This document shows, one piece after another, positions 1,754 to 13,314 of a DNA stretch of 13,596 nt. Origin of the DNA: Lachnospiraceae bacterium (GTDB lineage Bacteria > Bacillota > Clostridia > Lachnospirales > Lachnospiraceae); contig JAAWLS010000031.1 of assembly GCA_022798035.1 (NCBI GenBank), positions 1 through 13,596 on the forward strand, in the 5' to 3' direction. The position numbers and the translations under genes were made by a program. The stretch's first letter is position 1. The number at the start of each line of letters is the position of its first letter. Below the pieces are notes generated by a model. The model saw only the letters and a list, made by a program, of their open reading frames with translations, ran no database searches and was not told the DNA's origin.

Positions 1754-3391
<1,638 letters not shown>

Positions 3392-3444
3392 TAAAACTTC
3401 AACGCTTTAAAGTCTTGATTTCTTCTCTGGCACTGTTTTTTCTG

Positions 3445-3684
3445 TCAAAGTTTCAGGAGAATACGCTCGGCCTTTTCCCGTATGCTCTCGGAAGCGGCGG
3501 CGTTAAAATGGGCGTTGACCGTATAAACGGTTCCGTCTATCTCCTTCTGGAAATTGACGGGATGGGGATACTGCGACCTGCGAAACCACGCTAACCGTTC
3601 TTCTCTTGTCATAGCGGAAAGATTATCTGTGATGTCATCAATCATCTGGTGGATGGCAATGTCTTCATAGATTTCGTCTGTCAT
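3445..3684 (-). CDS. TnpW-like transposon-encoded protein
   Basis: 79-aa soluble protein resembling the small TnpW family of Tn4451-type elements. Its C-terminal half carries the family-like pattern IDGTVYTVNAHFNAAASESI followed by KAERILLK. Its role in the family is unclear; it travels with relaxase and recombinase genes. The ATG overlaps the relaxase stop by 4 nt (ATGA at 3681-3684), so it was probably translationally coupled to the relaxase. With several nonsense and frameshift mutations upstream, coupling is likely impaired. This is the only mobility-module gene whose frame looks intact, and I see no missing segment. Confidence 0.7.
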   Translation of the reverse strand: MTDEIYEDIAIHQMIDDITDNLSAMTREERLAWFRRSQYPHPVNFQKEIDGTVYTVNAHFNAAASESIREKAERILLKL

Positions 3685-5215
3685 ATCCGCAATTCCTTCT
3701 TTCTGCGGTCTGCTATGCCTGTTCTGGCGTTTGGATTTGTCCTCTGATTTTCAAGTGTATCGTGGATTTGGTCTAAGCAATTGTCAATATGGGCGGAGCG
3801 TTTCTCAATGGCGGCGGCATATTTCAGCCGCCTGCGAAGCTCCGTTATCTGCTCCGTCACGCCCTGCTTTTCCTCCCGAAGTTTCTCTTTTTCAGCGGGT
3901 AAGGCTCTGCGTATTTTATTCTGCAAATGCCGCCGATAGTCGATGAGCCTGTCCATTTCCGTCTGGTTGTTATCCCTGTCGGCGTGTAAATCGGAGAGTG
4001 TGGAAATATGATGCTTGGTCATATACCGTACCTGTGCGGTGATTTCGTCTAATTTCCGCAATTTTTCTTTCATCAACGGACTGGTCGGCTTGTAGTCCGT
4101 ACCCTTTGGCAATATCCCCAACTGATAGCACCAGTAATAATACAATGCTAAAATGCCTGTGGTTTTCTGATGTGGTCGCCACGCTTTCTTATATTCCTCC
4201 GGCATATGTGGGGAGTAGGAAATCCTCGCTTTGTAGTTCCCATACCTCGCCCTTGTACCTTAAGTGACTGCGGATAAATTCAGGCGTTAATCGCTCGTCA
4301 AGGGTATCGAGCCTTGTGAAATGGGCGTACTGCGGCAGCTTCATTTTCTAATGCTCTCCCGTAAGATCCACCTCATAACCTTTGTCAGTCAGATATTTTA
4401 TCATGTGCGGGATATCCCTGCTGCCGCTGATTGCCTCCGTCAAATCTTCCAGATAGACATGGTAGCGTGTGGATTTGCCGCTTTTCTCGTCCAGATACAG
4501 AGGTCTTGACGGAGCCTTTTTCGGATGTTCGATGACCGACAATCCGTATTCCCGACGCAAACGGTCTGATACATCTCTTAGTCTTTTCTGCTCCGATTTG
4601 GGATAATTGTATATCCCTTTTCATAGAAATGTGTAGGTGGTTGAAGCGTGTATAAATAAGCGTCTAAAATGTGAGATTTATACATCTATTTTATAATTTG
4701 ATAGGAATAAATATATAAATATCATCTTAAAAATTGGAATTGAACAGTGACTACACTTTTCACGAAAAGGGAGAATTGTATTTCTGCCCGTCCACAAACG
4801 AAACGGAATTGAAGCAGAAGTGATTGTGCAAATGCTCTTTGTCAAGGTGGGTAGTGACGATTATCTGGTACTTATCGCCCCACATCTCCCTCGCCAGTTT
4901 CAAGCCGATTTCGTGGCACTCATCGGGCGTTACCTCGTCTGGTTTGAAGCTCTGATACCTATGCCAAGCGATATATCCATCTGCTTTCTGGTACTGCTTT
5001 TTCGTCAAAATAATCTGCTGCAAGGCGGTTTCTTTCAGACAGTTGATAGCGGAAACATAGTCGCCGTTATCCGTTTTCTCAGGATTTCGCACATAGGAAA
5101 ACACATCGAGGAAGTCCTGCATAGCTTTATCAGGTACGGTCTTTTCAGGATTTTCCACATAGTCAATCAGGTTTTTTAAGTTTCCTTTGATATGCTATAG
5201 GATCGTTGCCGCCAT
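3681..5215 (-). pseudogene. MobP-type relaxase (Tn4451 TnpZ-like), multiply disrupted
   Basis: Relaxase that would nick oriT and lead strand transfer during mobilization. The true start is ATG 5213-5215 (MAATIL), 10 nt beyond the mobC-like stop, with GAGGTGG upstream. The N-terminal relaxase domain shows the three-histidine metal motif HLDKEHLHNHF (about residues 123-133) followed by FNSVSFVDG. The middle and C-terminal parts have the usual coiled-coil, charged tail. Four lesions are visible. Codon 7 is TAG. A 161-bp MITE interrupts the frame after KYN. TAG at 4348-4350 interrupts H-stop-KMKLPQYAHF, where W would be natural. A frameshift lies near 4235-4250 between KGEV and YGNYKARISYS. Restoring these gives one continuous protein of about 450 residues. 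The family is secure and it is certainly nonfunctional as written. Confidence 0.9.
4613..4773. mobile_element. 161-bp MITE inside the relaxase gene
   Basis: The insertion is AT-rich and noncoding. Its terminal inverted repeats are left TCCCTTTTCATAGAAATG and right, reverse-complemented, TCCCTTTTCGTGAAAAGT, imperfect over about 22 nt. Identical 8-bp direct repeats AATTGTAT flank it at 4605-4612 and 4774-4781. Removing the insert plus one repeat restores the relaxase frame across KYNYPKSEQ, which fixes the borders. An 8-bp duplication fits IS families such as ISL3, IS66 or IS256, but I cannot assign the parent transposase. No second copy was noticed in the window. Confidence 0.85.
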
Positions 5216-5225
5216 TCACACCACC

Positions 5226-5577
5226 TCATTCCGCATCAAAACGCTGCGGGGAAGTGGCTGTCTGCTGTAATTCCAAGATAAATTTCTCAATCTTTTGACA
5301 GGTTTTGGCGGCGTTAGGATAATAGGGAATGCACTTTTTAAAGGCGGCGTGTACCTCATAGAGCGTATCCATCAACTGCCAGAACTCTGCCTTCGGCTGT
5401 GGGGCGTTGCCCTTGCATAACTGCCGCATAAACTCTGCTGCGGACAGACCGCAAGCAGCGTGAATAGGGATTGTGGCTGACACAATCCGATGCTCGCTAT
5501 CTCTGTGGACACCTATCTCTGTGGACTGTGGACACCTCCACAGAGAAACTTTCTGTGTAGTCGCCGTTCTTCCATAC
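5226..5577 (-). pseudogene. MobC-like mobilization accessory protein, frameshifted
   Basis: The downstream part (5226-5483) encodes an 85-aa tail with CGLSAAEFMRQLCKG followed by a helical region (FWQLMDTLYEVHAAF). This is laid out like the C-terminal half of relaxosome proteins of the MobC type, which bind oriT and help the relaxase. Upstream, VWKNGDYTESFSVEVST VHRD is coding in another frame. Removing one copy of a 16-bp tandem duplication fuses it to SEHRIVSATIPIH. No ATG, GTG or TTG is seen before VWKNGD within that open frame, so the start is also lost or misread. It lies directly before the relaxase, whose ribosome-binding site overlaps its stop region. The MobC assignment rests on position and layout; the frameshift is well supported. 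Confidence 0.6.
5497..5526. repeat. 16-bp tandem duplication in mobC-like gene
   Basis: CTATCTCTGTGGAC occurs at 5497-5510 and again at 5513-5526, a period of 16 bp. As 16 is not a multiple of three it shifts the mobC-like reading frame, and deleting one unit restores it. It looks like a replication-slippage or recombination scar. Part of the second copy can also pair with TCCACAGAG at 5537-5545. Confidence 0.8.
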
Positions 5578-6033: not shown

Positions 6034-6573
6034 TTATTTTCTATTTGCCCAAAAGGTGAGATACATTTGAGCAACTGATTCAAGTAGTACAAACAATATA
6101 TGTAAAATAGTAAAAATACAAACTGCCGTAATGTATTTTAATGATACAATCGGTAAAACATTTTGTATAAGAGAAACTGCTATGAGTACTACTAAATATA
6201 TAATCTCAACAATAACATTATAAGCTATATTAGAAAGCAAAATTTGGAACAAAGATAACTGCTTACCATTAACAGGCTTATATTGCTTTTTGTTTGATTC
6301 GGTTTCTTTTAAACATTGTATATTCTTGTTGTCCGCAGAAACCAAAATAGTAATGATAGCTACAGAAAAAGAAATTAAAATTGCTACAATATTTATCTGT
6401 GTATCTACAAATTCGGAAAAAACCAATGTAACCTTTTCTGAATTACCGATATTGAAAAATAAGGAGAACAATAACGCTATCAGGGAAATAAGCATTGGAA
6501 TGAGGAATTTTACAAAGACTCGTTTCCTTGAAATAAAATAATCCTTGATAGGAACCCAAATTATACTTTTCAT
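6034..6573 (-). CDS. Four-helix membrane protein, last gene of defence operon
   Basis: 179-aa integral membrane protein of unrecognised family. Four hydrophobic segments are evident at about residues 21-42, 58-80, 107-136 and 146-175. A charged loop of about 27 residues (DNKNIQCLKE onward) joins segments 2 and 3, and the basic N-terminus should face the cytoplasm. There is no signal peptide or enzymatic motif. Its ATG overlaps the stop of the preceding gene by 4 nt (ATGA at 6570-6573), implying translational coupling and joint function. A small four-helix membrane effector coupled to a cytoplasmic partner recalls RexB of lambda, a membrane-depolarising effector of 144 aa. I see no sequence identity that proves this. 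It could instead be a membrane anchor or immunity-type partner. Confidence 0.6.
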   Translation of the reverse strand: MKSIIWVPIKDYFISRKRVFVKFLIPMLISLIALLFSLFFNIGNSEKVTLVFSEFVDTQINIVAILISFSVAIITILVSADNKNIQCLKETESNKKQYKPVNGKQLSLFQILLSNIAYNVIVEIIYLVVLIAVSLIQNVLPIVSLKYITAVCIFTILHILFVLLESVAQMYLTFWANRK

Positions 6574-7499
6574 GTCCTATTCCTCGTTTCTTCTATAAAT
6601 TCTTGCGCTTTCACGAAGAAATCTGTGCTGTTCACTTCGTTGGTTATAGCTTCGGCGGCGACTGATAAATAATGTTTCATTTTCATCAATTCAGTGTCAA
6701 CTTCAAATTGACCAGATGCATTCGTTCCCTTGATAGTAACTTTTTTGATTTTTCCACTTGTCTTATTTTGAGAGTTATCAAAATAAGCCTGAATCAAGTT
6801 TTCAGGAAATCTTTTTGCACCTTTTGGTCGCCTAAGACATATTTCAACTTCATCAGCAATGTCGTTTCTTCCAGCAAACATCATAAAATCATCCTTTATA
6901 TCTTCCTTGCTTACTACTAATTTTAATAAGGACATAGTTTTTGCTTTTTTGATTGATGAAAGAAAATCTTCTCCCGGCATAATTTCATACGATATTGAAT
7001 AATGATATTCGTCATTATTATCTTCGTTATAACTAATGAATTGAGTGTTTAAATAGTCGACAATACAGTTCAATGTAATGCCATAATGGTTACTTTCATG
7101 AACTGTGAGGAAACGATATTCACCAGCGTTATAACGAATACACAAATGCGTTTTTTCTTCATCGCCATCCTGCTGACGCTTGCGAGTACCAAGTTCCGTC
7201 ATCGTTTCAGTATCAATTTCGTTTCGCACGTGATTGTATTTGGCAGATTTAAAAATTATATTGTAGTTTCCATTTTTCAAATCCTCAAATGAATCAAGCC
7301 ATACAACCTTTTCAGAACTTGTAATATCTTTCTTCCTGTCAGTTAGCTCTTTTCTCATAGTGTATGATAATAGTTTTGAAAACGAATCTATGATTTGTTG
7401 CATATCATAAGTGGAAGAATCGTTACTATCTTTTTGCTTTGAAATTGTAAGATAATAAAAGTAAATCGGAACACTTTTCGTTGGCTCTTGACTACTCAT
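6570..7499 (-). CDS. Hypothetical 309-aa soluble protein, possible RexA-like sensor
   Basis: No family recognised with confidence. The start is ATG 7497-7499 (MSSQEPTK), chosen because GGAGGAG lies about 6 nt upstream; the upstream in-frame start would overlap the Res gene and lacks such a site. The protein is cytoplasmic and of mixed alpha/beta pattern. It has an N-terminal strand (VPIYFYYLTI), a charged middle region, a segment ISYEIMPGEDFLSSIKKA, a basic strand-rich segment (EVEICLRRPKGAKRF) and a helical C-terminus. No helicase, nuclease or NTPase motif is visible. Its size, layout and coupling to a four-helix membrane protein resemble RexA of lambda (279 aa), which senses phage complexes and triggers RexB. 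This is an analogy, not a homology claim. It begins 14 nt after Res, so it is probably co-expressed with restriction. Confidence 0.55.
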   Translation of the reverse strand: MSSQEPTKSVPIYFYYLTISKQKDSNDSSTYDMQQIIDSFSKLLSYTMRKELTDRKKDITSSEKVVWLDSFEDLKNGNYNIIFKSAKYNHVRNEIDTETMTELGTRKRQQDGDEEKTHLCIRYNAGEYRFLTVHESNHYGITLNCIVDYLNTQFISYNEDNNDEYHYSISYEIMPGEDFLSSIKKAKTMSLLKLVVSKEDIKDDFMMFAGRNDIADEVEICLRRPKGAKRFPENLIQAYFDNSQNKTSGKIKKVTIKGTNASGQFEVDTELMKMKHYLSVAAEAITNEVNSTDFFVKAQEFIEETRNRT

Positions 7500-7513
7500 G
7501 GTTTGTCTCCTCC

Positions 7514-9709
7514 TTACAGTACATCTGATAGCAGCTTCCAATTATTACTCTTGATATTGTCAGAGTAAGTTTCTGTACAAATGCAAAGTTCGCCACTTTG
7601 CTTATCCTGACGAACGACCCCGCCGAGCAAATTGTATTTATCCGTGTAAGACTTTAACACATTAAATTTCTTGACAGTAAATTTATCAATATCTTCACTG
7701 TCTCCCGACTTTGTAAATCCGCCTTTTGTTTCAATTATCCACACCTTTCCGTCAGTTGTTCCAATGACATAATCGGGATAAAAGGATTTTTGCTTTTCAA
7801 AATTATCTGTGTAAACGATAGAAAAATACTCAATCCCTTTGTCTCCATTCTTGTAAAACCACTGAACATTTTTGCTGTTCTCACAATAGCGTTCAAAAAG
7901 TTTTTCTGGCAAGGAACGTTTCTCAGCAGAAGAAAGATATCCTTTATATACATTCTTTGAAAACTCTGTTTGTGACTTTGCAGTTCCATCGTATGTAAAA
8001 ATCATCTCCAACGGGAATCCGATTGGTTTCTCCGTCTTTTTTGGAATTGCCAAAGTTAATTGTAGAGATTCGTCTGCCATAGCGTTGCGAACATCTTCAA
8101 CCAGTAAATGCTTATTATTGATTATAAAAGCATATAATTCTCTTGTTTCAATTTTAAGAATTTTGAACTCACAACGTAATCCCTTGAGAAAGAGCTTACG
8201 CACTATGGTGTTTGTGCTGTTGTAGTCCAGATTTACCTTATATCCTATTTCCGCAACACAGTGATGATATTCTTTGCCATGTTTATGTGTATTTAATGCC
8301 TCATGTATCGAAATATCGTTCAGTTCAGCTATATTTTCTTTTGACAAAGTGCTTACGAAACCTGACTTCGTATAGTCAATAATATCCTCTGAAAATGAAT
8401 AGCCATATGCTTCCAGTAATGCCTTGTTTTTTGAGATATCGCTTTTAACATGATATTTCTTTTCAAAATATTTATAAATCACTTTAAGTGAGAGCTTTGC
8501 ATCGCGAGGATAAGGAACATCAGTTTTATATTCGCTGATAAGTGAAAAGAAACGATGTTCTGGCTTTAAAAATACTTTGTATGCGTCAAGCGCACCTTTG
8601 CCTAAGCTCAGTTTTACACTCTCTGTGAATTTTTCGTCTAAAGTATATAGATAGCAACTATCAAGCAAATCGCTCTCAAAGTGTTTGGCTTCAGGCATAC
8701 GACGAATCCGCCCGATAGTCTGAATTTCAAACGTTTCGCTCATATTATCACGAAGCTTTACCAAAATTTGCGCTCTTGGACAATCCCAACCGGTAGCCAC
8801 AGCCTGCTTAATGATAACAGCAATAGGTTCTGCGTTTGGTTTTTCGATATCTTCAAGATTTTGCTTTTTGTCAGAAAGCCAAACGGCAAGGGCGTTATTC
8901 TCATAAGTAATTCCCTTGCTTTCAAAATATTCTTCCACTCTGTCAAGCAAAGCATCTGATTTATTTGGAATCTGCACGATAATAAGGGGATTAATTTCCT
9001 CTTTTCGATTCAAAAATTCCGAATGAAGCTCACGCTGCTTTGCAATAGCCCTATCAAGCAGATATGTAATTTGGTCGTCTACACTAATATGCTGTTCAAA
9101 ATTTTCATTGATAATAAGCAGTTTTTTAATTAAACCTTCTGCAATGACATCTTCCTCTGGAATGTCTATCAAAACAGCGTCTTTATAATTTTTCGGCGTA
9201 GCCGAGCAACGGATTATCTTGTCCGACTGAAACAAATCGATAATATCATCCGCTTTAATCGTATCGTTTTGATGAGATTCATCAACAACGATTTTAAAAC
9301 TCAAATCATTATCCCGTGCATTGCGTATATGTTCAATGAAATTTGTGCGTTCGCTGTCTTTAAGCGCAGTATTGCCTTTCTTTGTCAGCTTCTCCCAGTT
9401 AATAAAACAAGCGTCATTTTCCTCAAAACCAGCCGTCATAATATCAGAGAGCAATTTAGTTTGACTTCCGTGGATGTACCGATCCATCTTTTCTTTGCTC
9501 TGTTCTTCTAAATTACCTTTACCGGGAGTAAGCCACACAAATACTGTTTTATGGTTACCTTTGAGATATTCGTCCATAAAATGAGTGAGTATAATGGTTT
9601 TTCCACTTCCCGTACAACTTCTGAGGATAATATCCCTATTCGGCTGTTCCATTGCGGCAGTTAAATCAGCGATAGCTTTTATCTGAAAATTTGCAAGGGT
9701 AATATCCAT
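7514..9709 (-). CDS. res: Type III restriction enzyme Res subunit (helicase-nuclease)
   Basis: 731-aa cytoplasmic ATP-dependent restriction subunit that works in complex with the adjacent Mod protein. It has a superfamily-2 helicase core: motif I SCTGSGKT (residues 31-38), motif II DESH (143-146), motif III SAT (169-171), TGWDCP (306-311) and motif VI QTIGRIRR (330-337). The GWDCP and GRIRRMPE wording is typical of Res. Near the C-terminus PD (645-646) and ETK (660-662) form a PD-X13-ExK nuclease site with all catalytic residues present. It is shorter than classical EcoP1/EcoP15 Res (near 970 aa), but domain order is intact. The ATG lies 3 nt after the Mod stop, with its GGAGG inside the end of mod, so expression is coupled. 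No frameshift or premature stop was seen. Confidence 0.93.
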   Translation of the reverse strand: MDITLANFQIKAIADLTAAMEQPNRDIILRSCTGSGKTIILTHFMDEYLKGNHKTVFVWLTPGKGNLEEQSKEKMDRYIHGSQTKLLSDIMTAGFEENDACFINWEKLTKKGNTALKDSERTNFIEHIRNARDNDLSFKIVVDESHQNDTIKADDIIDLFQSDKIIRCSATPKNYKDAVLIDIPEEDVIAEGLIKKLLIINENFEQHISVDDQITYLLDRAIAKQRELHSEFLNRKEEINPLIIVQIPNKSDALLDRVEEYFESKGITYENNALAVWLSDKKQNLEDIEKPNAEPIAVIIKQAVATGWDCPRAQILVKLRDNMSETFEIQTIGRIRRMPEAKHFESDLLDSCYLYTLDEKFTESVKLSLGKGALDAYKVFLKPEHRFFSLISEYKTDVPYPRDAKLSLKVIYKYFEKKYHVKSDISKNKALLEAYGYSFSEDIIDYTKSGFVSTLSKENIAELNDISIHEALNTHKHGKEYHHCVAEIGYKVNLDYNSTNTIVRKLFLKGLRCEFKILKIETRELYAFIINNKHLLVEDVRNAMADESLQLTLAIPKKTEKPIGFPLEMIFTYDGTAKSQTEFSKNVYKGYLSSAEKRSLPEKLFERYCENSKNVQWFYKNGDKGIEYFSIVYTDNFEKQKSFYPDYVIGTTDGKVWIIETKGGFTKSGDSEDIDKFTVKKFNVLKSYTDKYNLLGGVVRQDKQSGELCICTETYSDNIKSNNWKLLSDVL

Positions 9710-9712
9710 TTT

Positions 9713-11395
9713 TTAGCCCTCCAGTTCTTTGTAGTAATAGTCAGGAATAATATTTATTGTTATTTTCCTGCCCTTCAAAATCTGTGCTTGCTGTGCATCC
9801 ATTAAAATGTCGTGGCCCAAATACAATTTCTTATATCTGGTGTTACTCTCAAGTTGTTGTATAAAATCGTCAAGTTCTTCATCAGTCAATACAATTCCGA
9901 TTTCCATATTGCCTGTAAAGTTGATACCGTTTTCCAATTCCACCAACTCACGGATATATTTCAGCAATTCATCGGCATACTCATAGTACAATCGGTCTGA
10001 AATTGGAACATAATCCACCTTATAATATTTCAGGCTTGCGGCATAGTTCTCTTTTTCAATAACACGTTTGATACGCTCATAGGTAACATCATGGCAAATT
10101 TTATTTTCGTTATTTGTGCAAAGAATAAATCTGCGGTTGCTGTTTTTGTTTTGTGCGTTTATCCGTAGCAGTGCTTGTGCAGTGGTTCCACTACCAGCAA
10201 AAAAGTCCAAAACCAGTGCACTTTCTTTATTTACCGTACCGATTTGTATTAAATACTTGATTAGCTCTACTGGCTTCGGGTATGGGAAAACCTTTCCTGA
10301 GAATAATTCTCCTAAATCCGCAGTACCTTCTTTTGTCATACCCACTTCGCATGGGAGTTGAGTGGTTGTTGCAGATACTCCTGCCACATTACCTGTTTTT
10401 TTGATTGCCTTTGCTTCGTCTTCGTCCCTAAAATAACGCATTTGTGGCTTTGAAATTTTGAGAAAATCATAATCTCCTGGAAAGATAATCCTATCTTCTT
10501 TAAGGTATTGAGGAAGCGTGTCTTTTGTCACAGCCCAAACACGATTTGGGTTTACAGGATACTCTTTACCATTTTTAGGATTAATCAATGTAAAAGCACT
10601 ATTTGGTCGCTCTGCCGCCGTTCTTTGTGTAGTCAAGTCATGTGTACGCCATTCTCGCCCCGGAATATCTTCAGTAGAAAAATATTTCCTCTGATTTTCT
10701 CGTTTTGTAAAAGCGTTAAACTGGTTGCTTTTTGCATATATTAGTATCCACTCATAATCTTGAGAAATTCCGAAAGGAACATCTGTCTTTGCTGTTCTCT
10801 TTCGCCAGGGAATCATTCCTGCAAAGTTGTTTTCGCTAAATATCAAATCACAGAGCAGTTTTAAATTCGCTTGTTCATTATCATCAATGCTAATAAAGAT
10901 AGCACCCGTATCAGCCAGAAGCCTTCTTGCAATCACAAGTCGTTCTTTGATGAAGGAAAGCCATTTAGAATGAATATAGCCGTCTGTTTTAACGATGAAA
11001 TCATCGTCATACTTAAAGTCATTTATGCCACGATTATATGGTGGATCTATGTAAATGAGGTCAATTTTCCCCTTATGGGTTTTCTCCAAGAGTTTCAATG
11101 AGGCGAGATTATCACCCTCAATGAGAAAGTTTATCTGACCGCCGTTATTGATAAACAAATCTTTTTCTTCAGTCAGCACGGGAGTATGAGTATCCAGTAT
11201 CTCATCTATTTCCTCTCTGTGTTCCTCAAATACAAGACCGTATTTTTTACCATTCATATCTTTTTCAAGCTCTGCAAGGTAAGAGAGAAGATTGCCCGTG
11301 TTCTCGTTCTGTGATGCAGCAGAAATAAAGTTACGAATCTCTTTAATTTTCGCCAGTAAATCTTCACGTTTTTGTTTTGATATATTCGTACTCAT
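9713..11395 (-). CDS. mod: Type III DNA methyltransferase Mod (N6-adenine, beta class)
   Basis: 560-aa S-adenosylmethionine-dependent DNA methyltransferase that recognises the target sequence for both methylation and restriction. The catalytic motif DPPYN (117-121) precedes the SAM-binding motif FFAGSGTT (398-405), the beta-class order used by type III Mod and N6-adenine enzymes. The region between them (about 190-390) should hold the target-recognition domain; specificity cannot be read from it. The N-terminal helical segment (1-75) may mediate subunit contacts. Start ATG 11395 has GGAGG about 8 nt upstream and overlaps the previous gene by 32 nt. It is somewhat shorter than EcoP15I Mod (near 640 aa). 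No simple-sequence tract suggesting phase variation was seen. Confidence 0.93.
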   Translation of the reverse strand: MSTNISKQKREDLLAKIKEIRNFISAASQNENTGNLLSYLAELEKDMNGKKYGLVFEEHREEIDEILDTHTPVLTEEKDLFINNGGQINFLIEGDNLASLKLLEKTHKGKIDLIYIDPPYNRGINDFKYDDDFIVKTDGYIHSKWLSFIKERLVIARRLLADTGAIFISIDDNEQANLKLLCDLIFSENNFAGMIPWRKRTAKTDVPFGISQDYEWILIYAKSNQFNAFTKRENQRKYFSTEDIPGREWRTHDLTTQRTAAERPNSAFTLINPKNGKEYPVNPNRVWAVTKDTLPQYLKEDRIIFPGDYDFLKISKPQMRYFRDEDEAKAIKKTGNVAGVSATTTQLPCEVGMTKEGTADLGELFSGKVFPYPKPVELIKYLIQIGTVNKESALVLDFFAGSGTTAQALLRINAQNKNSNRRFILCTNNENKICHDVTYERIKRVIEKENYAASLKYYKVDYVPISDRLYYEYADELLKYIRELVELENGINFTGNMEIGIVLTDEELDDFIQQLESNTRYKKLYLGHDILMDAQQAQILKGRKITINIIPDYYYKELEG

Positions 11396-11693
11396 TTCTG
11401 CGCCTCCATCTGTTTTTGGTTAGCTTTGCCTGTAAAATATCCCTTTGCATAATTAACTCCCCAACGATCTGAGCATTGGTTGCTTGATTGAACGATATAG
11501 AGGATATAGCAAGCTTTACAGAAGTAGCTACCGCTATATCTTCGTCGCTTATTCTTAATTCTTGTATTTTTTTAATTGCATGGTCTCTATCAAGTAAACC
11601 AGATTTTTTATAATTACAAATAATATTTTCTCTTTCTGCTATATCCTTCATAATTGATTCTTGGTCAAATATATCTTTAACAGGATTGCTCAT
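11364..11693 (-). CDS. Unrecognised 109-aa protein between AbiEii and Mod
   Basis: Start ATG 11691-11693 (MSNPVKDIF), preceded by AGGGAAG about 6 nt upstream, is preferred over an ATG at 11735 lying inside AbiEii. The protein is soluble, largely helical and charged, with a likely coiled or helical-bundle core (ISDEDIAVATSVKLAISSIS, then NAQIVGELIMQRDILQAKL) and a basic arginine/lysine C-terminus. It has no catalytic motif or membrane segment. Its 3' end overlaps mod by 32 nt in another frame, so it is probably translated with mod and may be a small partner, regulator or antitoxin of the methyltransferase complex. I cannot place it in a family. Position and strong coupling argue that it is real. 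Confidence 0.7.
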   Translation of the reverse strand: MSNPVKDIFDQESIMKDIAERENIICNYKKSGLLDRDHAIKKIQELRISDEDIAVATSVKLAISSISFNQATNAQIVGELIMQRDILQAKLTKNRWRRRNEYEYIKTKT

Positions 11694-11709
11694 TATAACT
11701 TCCCTCACA

Positions 11710-12606
11710 TTACATCCACTCGTTATTGGCAGCATACCATTGTTCTGTAAACTCTTTTCTTCCCACCGCTGCTGTAAACGGTTTTGCTAGGAAAACTTTT
11801 ATTGTTTTTAGCACGGTACTGTAATCATCCGTTTTTGAATCGATTTTACGGATAAAAGCTTTCCATTTCTTCTGCATTGCTTCGTCATCATCAAAAGCTG
11901 TAATTTGCCAAAACTGTTCAAGGGTGAAGCTATGTCTACGATTTTCAAAAGTCTTTCTTAATGCTTCAGTTAGCGTTACTCCATCGAAATCAAACTTATT
12001 TGCAAGATAATATATATCATAATAGTCTTTCATTCTACTGGAGAACTCCATAAGGCTAAGGATAGCGTCAATCTTTTCGGCTATCGTTGTTTCAAGAGAA
12101 TAGGTATTTACTGTCGGTGCGATAAAATTATCAAGCTGTGTCGGAATTTTTCGCTTTTCTTGTTTTGGTACAATGACATCGCCAACGCCGAGATCAATAC
12201 TGAACGGAGTTCTTGTATTCTTAATGCGGGCAACCATCGATGCGCCAATACCCGCATATTTTTTTGTAACAGCAATAGGTGCAATATCCTTAATTTCAAA
12301 AATAATAAAATCATTTCCTGTAGGAGTAGCTATAATTTCTTCCAATACAGATTTTAACTGTTCGGGAGTGTTGGGTACTTTACGAAGAAGAAAGTCAACA
12401 TCTACCGTTACACGACTGTCAAAATCGGTAACAGAATATATGAATAATCCGCCTTTAAGCACAAGATTTTCGGAGTATTTGGATTTTTCCAAACGACGCA
12501 GAAACTCCTCCTGACAGAAAAGCTGCAGGCAAAGCTGATAGCTTCTTCCACTTTCTTTTGCCTTGTTTTTCAATCTTGCAAGCACAGATGCAGCAATATC
12601 AGCCAT
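11710..12606 (-). CDS. abiEii: AbiEii/AbiGii family nucleotidyltransferase toxin
   Basis: 298-aa toxin of the AbiE type IV toxin-antitoxin family, a nucleotidyltransferase-fold enzyme. Characterised relatives (MenT) transfer nucleotides to tRNA; AbiEii itself binds GTP. Recognisable motifs are VLKGG (49-53), R65 and the D69-x-D71 pair (RVTVDVDFLL), a third acidic site SIDLGVGD (about 136-143), and the C-terminal signature TIAEKIDAIL followed by RMKDYYDIYYL (174-201). All expected catalytic residues are present, so it should be active. The ATG overlaps the AbiEi stop by 8 nt, with GGAGGTG about 7 nt upstream. In the family, expression causes growth arrest that limits phage spread and is countered mainly by repression by AbiEi. 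Here it precedes restriction-modification genes in one transcript. Confidence 0.9.
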   Translation of the reverse strand: MADIAASVLARLKNKAKESGRSYQLCLQLFCQEEFLRRLEKSKYSENLVLKGGLFIYSVTDFDSRVTVDVDFLLRKVPNTPEQLKSVLEEIIATPTGNDFIIFEIKDIAPIAVTKKYAGIGASMVARIKNTRTPFSIDLGVGDVIVPKQEKRKIPTQLDNFIAPTVNTYSLETTIAEKIDAILSLMEFSSRMKDYYDIYYLANKFDFDGVTLTEALRKTFENRRHSFTLEQFWQITAFDDDEAMQKKWKAFIRKIDSKTDDYSTVLKTIKVFLAKPFTAAVGRKEFTEQWYAANNEWM

Positions 12607-13204
12607 TGAGTAACACCTCCATTATATTCATAACTTTTGTATAAAGTTTCATTTCTTTTGCATACTTCGAGAGGTTCGCAAGATTTTTATTTTTATCGGT
12701 TGCGTATGCGTTGACAGCCTTATTAAAAGTTTCGTTGTCAAGTTTTGTTCGATACTTAAAACAATCACATATTGTGCGTTCCTGGTCATATACAGCAAGC
12801 GCTATGCCATTAAAATTATCTGTGATTTTTCCCATTTGGAAAAATTGTTTTTGAATATAGTAAGCTTTTATCGGGAATTCCTCTATTTTTTTAATGGAAC
12901 GAGACGCTGTTCTTGGTACGGCAACAGACCATTCACGAGGAGCAAAATCACTATACCCATAATGAAACAAGGCGGATTCCACACAAACAATCCCTTGTGG
13001 AAGAAGCTCTCGTATCAACTGTTCCTCTGTAATTTGATTGCTTTGTGGAAACTGATAAACACCTCGTCGGATTCTTTCGATAAAACCTTCTTTACAAAGT
13101 GCAGCCACATCATAATTCTTTATACCTTCTGCTGTAAAGTCAGCAGTTTTTGCAATGCCACCTTTATTTTCAAGTACAGTTTTTACAATTTCTTTTTTAT
13201 TCAA
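12599..13204 (-). CDS. abiEi: AbiEi family antitoxin / transcriptional repressor
   Basis: About 201-aa antitoxin of the AbiE system. An N-terminal winged-helix domain (about the first 60 residues; GGIAKTADFTAEGI, LCKEGFIERIRRGVYQFP) is typical of the family, followed by the AbiEi C-terminal domain. In characterised systems AbiEi represses its own operon. Start choice: the longest frame begins at ATG 13249, but that codon lies only 2-5 nt beyond the -10 box, near or before the expected transcription start, and has no ribosome-binding site. The next usable start is TTG 13202-13204, with a weak GGTG upstream and a natural N-terminus NKKEIVKTVLENKGG. It is the first gene of the operon and overlaps abiEii by 8 nt. 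Confidence 0.85.
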   Translation of the reverse strand: MNKKEIVKTVLENKGGIAKTADFTAEGIKNYDVAALCKEGFIERIRRGVYQFPQSNQITEEQLIRELLPQGIVCVESALFHYGYSDFAPREWSVAVPRTASRSIKKIEEFPIKAYYIQKQFFQMGKITDNFNGIALAVYDQERTICDCFKYRTKLDNETFNKAVNAYATDKNKNLANLSKYAKEMKLYTKVMNIMEVLLNG

Positions 13205-13222: not shown

Positions 13223-13314
13223 CACGCAATTACAAAATATCGTATGCATTTATTGTAACATGAATCAAAAGCAATATCAATAGCTATTGGCGGACAATTT
13301 TTAAATATTGCGTG
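13223..13314. promoter_or_regulatory. Candidate AbiEi operator region
   Basis: Two features surround the promoter. CAATAGCTATTG (13278-13289) is a perfect 12-bp palindrome overlapping the -35 box. CACGCAAT (13223-13230) and ATTGCGTG (13307-13314) are perfect 8-bp inverted arms on either side of the promoter, with looser similarity beyond them. AbiEi proteins are known to repress their own promoters by binding paired inverted repeats, so either could be its site. The repeats are seen; the binding is inferred. Confidence 0.5.
13252..13280 (-). promoter_or_regulatory. Promoter of the seven-gene defence operon
   Basis: On the minus strand TTGATA (13275-13280) and TACAAT (13252-13257) are separated by exactly 17 bp, close to the sigma-A consensus. 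The expected start of transcription is near 13245. It is the only strong promoter noticed ahead of the operon, and the spacing of the downstream genes leaves no room for clear internal ones, so it probably serves all seven genes. Confidence 0.75.

What the first reader, a model, noticed from the sequence alone, without database searches (positions are those of the whole stretch)
6034..13204. Seven-gene composite defence operon: AbiE + type III R-M + unknown sensor/membrane pair
AbiEi, AbiEii, a 109-aa protein, Mod, Res, a 309-aa protein and a four-helix membrane protein are all on one strand. Spacings are -8, 16, -32, 3, 14 and -4 nt, behind one promoter, and all seven frames are intact. AbiE and type III R-M are each known defence systems. 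Their fusion into one transcript with two unknown tail genes suggests layered immunity in which failure of restriction triggers abortive arms.
Basis: partly seen in the sequence, partly recalled or inferred. Interest (0 to 1): 0.72.

Follow-up and report, generated by a model that had tools for sequence, protein, structure and literature searches.

The report
Restriction operon with a Rex-like tail
A gut bacterium carries a DNA-cutting antiviral system whose operon ends in a gene pair resembling RexA and RexB, the classic phage-exclusion pair of phage lambda, so the two unknown genes can be given a likely identity and their link to restriction can be tested.

Summary

Of 26 loci picked by RexA, 23 have RexB directly behind and 22 Res directly before it. 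RexAB-bearing Res form one clade (100/98). Of 17 loci picked by Res, both at 67% identity or more carry RexAB; none of 15 at 60% or less does (one at a contig edge). Six of those carry another known or candidate defence gene in that place (Thoeris, bSEFIR, Hachiman-type helicase and others). AbiE is a later addition in one subclade.

Layered immunity is plausible but unproven; nothing here tests whether RexAB responds to restriction. The papers searched did not describe this linkage.

The parts
13252..13280 (-). sigma-A-type promoter TTGATA-17-TACAAT with TG before the -10
   Evidence: -35 TTG and five of six -10 positions the same in 9 of 9 aligned rows, window included
12599..13204 (-). AbiEi antitoxin/repressor, 201 aa, TTG start
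11710..12606 (-). AbiEii nucleotidyltransferase toxin, 298 aa
   Evidence: Pfam AbiEii 5.7e-49, PADLOC 1.5e-92
11364..11693 (-). 109-aa protein of unknown family, in the slot that holds a DUF6680-type protein in 8 of 9 AbiE-bearing relatives
   Evidence: no family; 73 database relatives, the few named ones from Lachnospiraceae, Roseburia, Choladousia and Anaerovoracaceae; slot comparison
9713..11395 (-). Mod, type III N6-adenine methyltransferase, 560 aa; DPPYN at residues 117-121 before FAGSGTT at 399-405; hypervariable middle about residues 200-370 (target recognition domain)
7514..9709 (-). Res, type III helicase-endonuclease, 731 aa; TGSGKT 33-38, DESH 143-146, PD 645-646, ETK 660-662
   Evidence: these motifs kept in 18 of 18 aligned rows
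6570..7499 (-). RexA-like protein, 309 aa, RexA/RdgC fold
6034..6573 (-). RexB-like membrane protein, 179 aa, four hydrophobic helices, overlaps the RexA-like gene by 4 nt
   Evidence: model pLDDT 89.2; four hydropathy peaks, basic N-terminus, TM2-3 loop and C-terminus; viral model hits weak, the second from Mycobacterium phage Sbash, E 0.41; directly behind RexA in 23 of 26 loci

Best explanation
The core is a type III restriction-modification system, Mod-Res, that carries a RexAB-like abortive pair as a co-transcribed second layer; an AbiE type IV toxin-antitoxin module and a small unknown gene were added in front in one subclade. Shown by sequence and structure prediction: the identities, the fold of the RexA-like protein, the four-gene order, its clade and purifying selection. 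Inferred: Mod methylates the host's sites; Mod-Res cuts unmodified incoming DNA; if phage DNA survives and replicates, the RexA-like DNA-binding protein recognises a phage protein-DNA complex or DNA end and activates the RexB-like membrane protein, which stops the cell before phage are made. The 4-nt overlap would keep the RexA:RexB ratio steady, which known Rex systems need. AbiEi, first in the operon, is the likely repressor of the shared promoter. Whether RexA also takes its signal from Res (broken ends, a stalled or inhibited enzyme) is the open question.
Against: No sequence-profile match to lambda: neither protein hits Pfam RexA (PF15969) or RexB (PF15968), which lambda's do; PHROGs puts them in other, unnamed families (4672, 4613) than lambda's (12654, 14878); hhalign against the lambda proteins gives probabilities under 1%. 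The whole-chain superposition on 8TWQ has a large rmsd (14.1 A over 222 residues), as rotated domains would give, but that is not proof. The RexB case rests on topology, position and weak structural hits. L006 has a 90% identical RexAB pair with no Res frame in the 266 nt before it, so the pair can stand alone. Most rows of the RexAB clade were picked by RexA, and all may go back to one joining event, so they are not independent proof of functional coupling. No expression or phage data.
Confidence: 0.62

Rival explanations
1. Coupled or guarded system: RexAB is held off by, or fired by, the type III enzyme itself. Res acting on unmodified DNA, or phage inhibition of Mod-Res, is the trigger for RexA, as PrrC is released when the type IC enzyme EcoPrrI is inhibited.
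For: RexAB-bearing Res form one clade and no RexAB-less Res of the sample falls inside it; Res and RexA co-diverge at r 0.93 while specificity is swapped; the place behind Res holds another known or candidate defence gene in 6 of 17 Res-picked loci; PrrC and PARIS are published guards of R-M (PMC12707154, passages).
Against: Rex-like pairs without R-M are found in phages, a plasmid and genomes and work without it in published systems; L006 keeps RexAB without Res directly before it; 6 of 17 Res-picked loci have no tail gene; most rows of the clade were picked by RexA, only L062, L084 and the phage-listed scaffold L031 were also or only found with Res; no contact between Res and RexA was tested.
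Confidence: 0.27
2. Defence-island hitch-hiking: several independent systems share one promoter and one mobile element for co-transfer; no functional interaction.
For: The genes in front change freely (AbiE, DUF6680, Schlafen-type, AAA ATPase, HTH); the window's left half holds a broken serine recombinase, a relaxase domain and TnpW; AbiE joined mainly one subclade; type III systems are reported to cluster with BREX and type IV systems (PMC9122601, passages).
Against: Does not by itself explain why the tail stays RexAB with spacings of 11-27 and -4 to +3 nt while the front and the Mod middle turn over.
Confidence: 0.4
3. The RexAB-like pair serves the element rather than excluding phage: RexA is a DNA-binding regulator of the operon or of the mobile element, RexB a toxic or regulatory membrane partner.
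For: Lambda RexA binds DNA non-specifically and biases the lysogeny switch independently of RexB (PMC11077077 abstract); the pair also lies on a Monoglobus plasmid and in phages.
Against: Found with its membrane partner in every locus where the contig allows the look; published relatives act in exclusion.
Confidence: 0.12

Closest known systems
Lambda RexA-RexB
   Same: RexA fold (8TWQ), gene order RexA then RexB, membrane partner
   Different: No sequence-family match; behind a type III Res, not in a prophage immunity region; 309/179 aa with a 4-nt overlap against 279/144 aa with a 15-nt gap
Sbash gp30/gp31, CarolAnn gp44/gp43, Pseudomonas putida PP_5643-5644
   Same: DNA-binding-fold protein plus four-TM partner, far from lambda in sequence; a Sbash protein is a weak structural hit of the 179-aa model; the central loop, needed in Sbash gp31, is among the most conserved parts here
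   Different: Those are prophage genes; none of the passages that I read ties them to R-M
PrrC with EcoPrrI (type IC R-M); PARIS
   Same: Abortive effector encoded with, or guarding, an R-M system (PMC12707154, passages)
   Different: Different R-M type and effector; guarding is described there, only possible here
EcoP15I-type type III R-M
   Same: Mod matches EcoP15I Mod (8.7e-34) and another Mod of known structure (6k0w, 1.3e-52); helicase plus PD-ExK Res
   Different: Res of 731 aa has no PDB sequence match at E 0.001; has the extra tail
AbiE type IV toxin-antitoxin
   Same: AbiEi and AbiEii families, overlapping genes, promoter in front
   Different: Followed at 16 nt and less by a restriction operon on the same strand

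Membership tests
Type III restriction-modification | Mod with N6_N4 methylase, DPPY motif before FxGxG, variable target domain between | tested here: met
   DPPYN in 16 of 16 and FAGSG in 16 of 16 aligned rows (loci with broken Mod left out)
Type III restriction-modification | Res with SF2 helicase motifs and C-terminal PD-(D/E)XK nuclease, encoded behind Mod | tested here: met
   motifs kept in 18 of 18 aligned rows
Type III restriction-modification | Methylation and ATP-dependent cleavage at two inverted sites | not testable with these tools
   biochemistry
RexAB-type exclusion system | RexA/RdgC fold in the first protein | tested here: met
RexAB-type exclusion system | Four-TM membrane partner directly downstream | tested here: met
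   partner in 23 of 26 loci; the other three are cut, deleted or a 32-residue match
RexAB-type exclusion system | DNA binding and dimerisation of RexA; phage exclusion through RexB | not testable with these tools
   needs protein and phage assays
RexAB-type exclusion system | RexB fold match to a known RexB | tested here: inconclusive
   no RexB structure among the PDB chains compared; best viral models weak, E 0.08 and 0.41
Lambda RexA/RexB sequence families (PF15969, PF15968, phrog_12654, phrog_14878) | profile match | tested here: not met
   lambda proteins match, these do not; hence RexAB-like, not filed in these families
AbiE type IV toxin-antitoxin | AbiEi antitoxin plus AbiEii nucleotidyltransferase in one operon | tested here: met
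AbiE type IV toxin-antitoxin | Negative autoregulation through inverted repeats by AbiEi | tested here: inconclusive
   by eye, imperfect inverted repeats before the -35 in L004 and L013, decayed in the window

The most novel reading that the evidence does not exclude
This family of type III R-M systems is a platform with an interchangeable effector slot directly behind Res: RexAB in one clade, Thoeris, bSEFIR, a Hachiman-type helicase, an OLD-like ATPase or a Schlafen-type protein in others. Mod supplies non-self recognition (and swaps its target domain freely), and the effector behind Res is fired by restriction activity or by its inhibition, so that RexAB here is a restriction-gated membrane suicide module rather than a stand-alone exclusion system.
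Probability: 0.25. Interest if true: 0.85.

Novelty: new variant of a known kind. Interest (0 to 1): 0.62.

Why it matters
How RexA is triggered has stayed unclear for some 70 years after the T4rII observation (PMC12894663, passage). A RexAB-like pair attached to one clade of restriction endonucleases in several bacterial families gives a natural, genetically separable candidate for the trigger: DNA ends or the R-M enzyme itself. If the coupling is real, type III R-M would join PrrC-type systems in which cutting DNA and stopping the cell are linked, with a modular choice of effector.

Tried and rejected
Rejected: (1) the 179-aa protein as a Lamassu LmuB relative (PADLOC 3e-4, residues 33-115 against a part of a 556-position ATPase model): taken as transmembrane composition. 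(2) AbiE as a fixed part: not found in 9 of the 18 loci that reach past Mod. (3) Sequence homology to lambda RexA/RexB as an argument: hhalign gave nothing, so the case rests on fold, order and topology. (4) RexAB with Mod-Res as ordinary viral cargo: the window's 309-aa protein had no IMG/VR match; the wider alignment A3 gave four contigs, none with Mod or Res in the stretch held. Against this, one short unverified scaffold listed as 'Bacteriophage sp.' (MT838221, L031) does carry Mod-Res-RexA; MT837414, with a 17% match, was not opened.

Limits of counts: RexA-picked loci cannot show how often Res has RexAB; the Res-picked set (17 loci from draws of 291, 392 and 398 genomes that overlap in part, only the best candidates of each genome scored) was made for that and holds only two loci at high identity. 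The L058 SEFIR gene was judged by its near identity to L057's, not scanned. In L086 an 82-aa frame overlaps the end of Res; I take it as spurious and count no tail. Gene calls there are mechanical (frames of 60 aa or more). L003's AbiEii row covers only 20 codons because of an in-frame stop and should be ignored. L004, L012 and L020 have broken Mod frames, L012 also a broken RexA; L025 and L026 hold truncated RexA; L027 is a 32-residue match. Correlations use 16 rows with unbroken genes. The tree flags long branches for L054, L075, L062 and L056. Prevalence: RexA family in 3 of 392 (order) and 4 of 391 genomes (class), own genome included; one of the four (G596, E 9e-4) was not borne out by tblastn.
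Full report
What is there. The window is a whole contig (C5 of G000, 63.6% complete, 325 contigs). AbiEi, AbiEii, Mod and Res are confirmed by family searches. The 109-, 309- and 179-aa proteins match no Pfam or NCBIfam family and no convincing PADLOC family.

The 179-aa partner has four hydrophobic segments, a basic N-terminus, a basic TM2-TM3 loop and a basic C-terminus, which suggests both ends inside, as described for Sbash gp31 and the P. putida partner (passages). Its model (pLDDT 89.2) matches viral models only weakly (best E 0.08), but that best match, from Siphoviridae sp. ctylc9, comes from the same phage as the best match of the RexA-like model, and the second (E 0.41) is a protein of Sbash, whose gp30/gp31 are a tested Rex-like defence pair. 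Sequence profiles do not join either protein to the lambda families. I therefore call the pair RexAB-like.

How fixed is the arrangement. The genome collection gave 26 loci for the 309-aa family. RexB lies directly behind RexA in 23, Res directly before it in 22. The exceptions: L006 has RexAB with no Res frame in the 266 nt that the contig holds; L025 ends inside RexA and has a Mod fragment before it; L026 holds a deleted RexA; L027 is a 32-residue match. Spacings: Mod-Res 1-3 nt in 15 of 16 scored, Res-RexA 11-27 in 18 of 18, RexA-RexB -4 to +3 in 21 of 21. AbiE genes are found in 9 of the 18 loci that reach past the Mod start (L016 has AbiEi only, L011 is cut inside AbiEii). The slot before Mod holds the 109-aa gene only in the window and L005; in the other 8 AbiE-bearing loci and in L017 it holds a DUF6680-type protein (L008 and L017 tested by Pfam, 1.4e-46 and 1.1e-45; the others judged by shared sequence). 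In AbiE-less loci other genes stand before Mod: Schlafen AlbA_2, AAA ATPase, AAA-ATPase with PD-DExK, HTH, Mob_Pre, or genes without a family.

Direction of linkage. Because those loci were picked by RexA, I searched 291, 392 and 398 genomes (class, order and phylum draws that overlap in part) with Res at E 1e-60 and read the neighbourhoods of all 17 Res loci found other than the window's. The two with Res at 67% and 73% carry RexAB (L062, L084). None of the 15 at 60% or less does; one of them (L075) ends at a contig edge. Of those 15, six have another known or candidate defence gene within 30 nt behind Res: Thoeris ThsA-ThsB (L061), bSEFIR (L057; L058 by near identity), a HamB-type helicase (L073), an OLD-like ATPase (L055), an AlbA_2/PDC-S50 protein (L077). 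Two have genes without a clear family (L059, L060). Six have no such gene (L054, L056, L074, L076, L085, L086); L054 and L085 have genes between Mod and Res instead. Of seven plasmid records with Res relatives at 36-40%, three were opened and list no tail gene (that gene table is incomplete). A Res tree of 36 rows puts all 21 RexAB-bearing rows on one side of one branch (100/98; all 200 bootstrap trees), and 8 AbiE-bearing rows as a set inside it (100/98). Most of the 21 rows were picked by RexA; what the tree adds is that no RexAB-less Res of the sample falls among them. So RexAB most likely joined once and mostly stayed; AbiE came later.

What moves and what stays. Across 16 loci, pairwise identity of Res correlates with RexA (0.93) and RexB (0.96); the Mod ends follow (0.76-0.79), the Mod middle does not (0.02-0.04). 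L021 and L023 share the window's Mod middle at 65-85% per 40-residue bin although their Res is at 70%, so specificity is exchanged between diverged systems. Res helicase and nuclease motifs are kept in 18 of 18 rows. dN/dS of 0.03-0.14 against near relatives shows purifying selection on the six genes compared, with saturated dS in many pairs.

Mechanism. Shown: identities, order, clade, conservation. From the literature: RexA is thought to be a DNA-binding sensor that activates membrane RexB; RexA excess fires RexB, and stoichiometry matters (PMC12894663, passages); Sbash gp31 is proposed as an ion channel opened through gp30, and substitutions in its central loop abolish defence (PMC6426596, passages). 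In P. putida membrane damage was seen without depolarisation, so I speak of a membrane effector rather than of a proven ion channel. Inferred: here restriction is the first layer and RexAB the second. The tight, clade-specific attachment to Res fits coupling, but one joining event kept by co-transfer would give the same picture. Guards of R-M exist (PrrC, PARIS; PMC12707154, passages), so coupling has precedent.

Novelty. In the searches I saw no title, abstract start or passage that reports RexAB-like genes as a tail of type III R-M. The parts are known kinds; the combination and the variable slot behind Res are, as far as these searches reach, not described. I rate it a new variant of a known kind.

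Noticed in passing
L055, L057, L058, L061, L073, L077 (behind Res): Other defence genes (OLD-like, bSEFIR, Thoeris, Hachiman-type helicase, AlbA_2/PDC-S50) sit within 30 nt behind Res relatives of 33-60% identity, as if the position were an exchangeable effector slot.
   Followed up: partly
window 9713-11395, residues about 200-370 of Mod: The Mod target domain is swapped freely between systems; L021 and L023 share the window's version although the rest of those systems is much more diverged.
   Followed up: partly
L006 1-1729: RexAB pair 90/86% identical to the window's, without a Res frame in the 266 nt before it.
   Followed up: partly
L074 6931-9123: Res relative (58%) with no Mod beside it.
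   Followed up: no
window 1754-5483 and 120-1253: Remains of a mobile element: serine recombinase split over two frames (1754-3100, 3111-3326), TnpW (3445-3684), relaxase nuclease domain (4760-5158); beside them an aldo/keto reductase with 4Fe-4S sites (120-1253).
   Followed up: partly
window about 13278-13289 and upstream of AbiEi in L004, L013: Inverted repeats before the -35 (clear by eye in L004 and L013; in the window a 12-bp palindrome CAATAGCTATTG overlaps the -35) that could be AbiEi operators.
   Followed up: partly
L085 5006-5506 (in the orientation with Res on +): A DUF6680-like gene before Mod also in a locus without RexAB and without AbiE directly before it, so it may be an older partner of this Mod (assigned by its N-terminal sequence, not searched).
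   Followed up: no
L031 968-5530: A 5.5-kb unverified 'Bacteriophage sp.' scaffold from human faeces carries Mod-Res-RexA, with Res 80% identical to the window's.
   Followed up: partly
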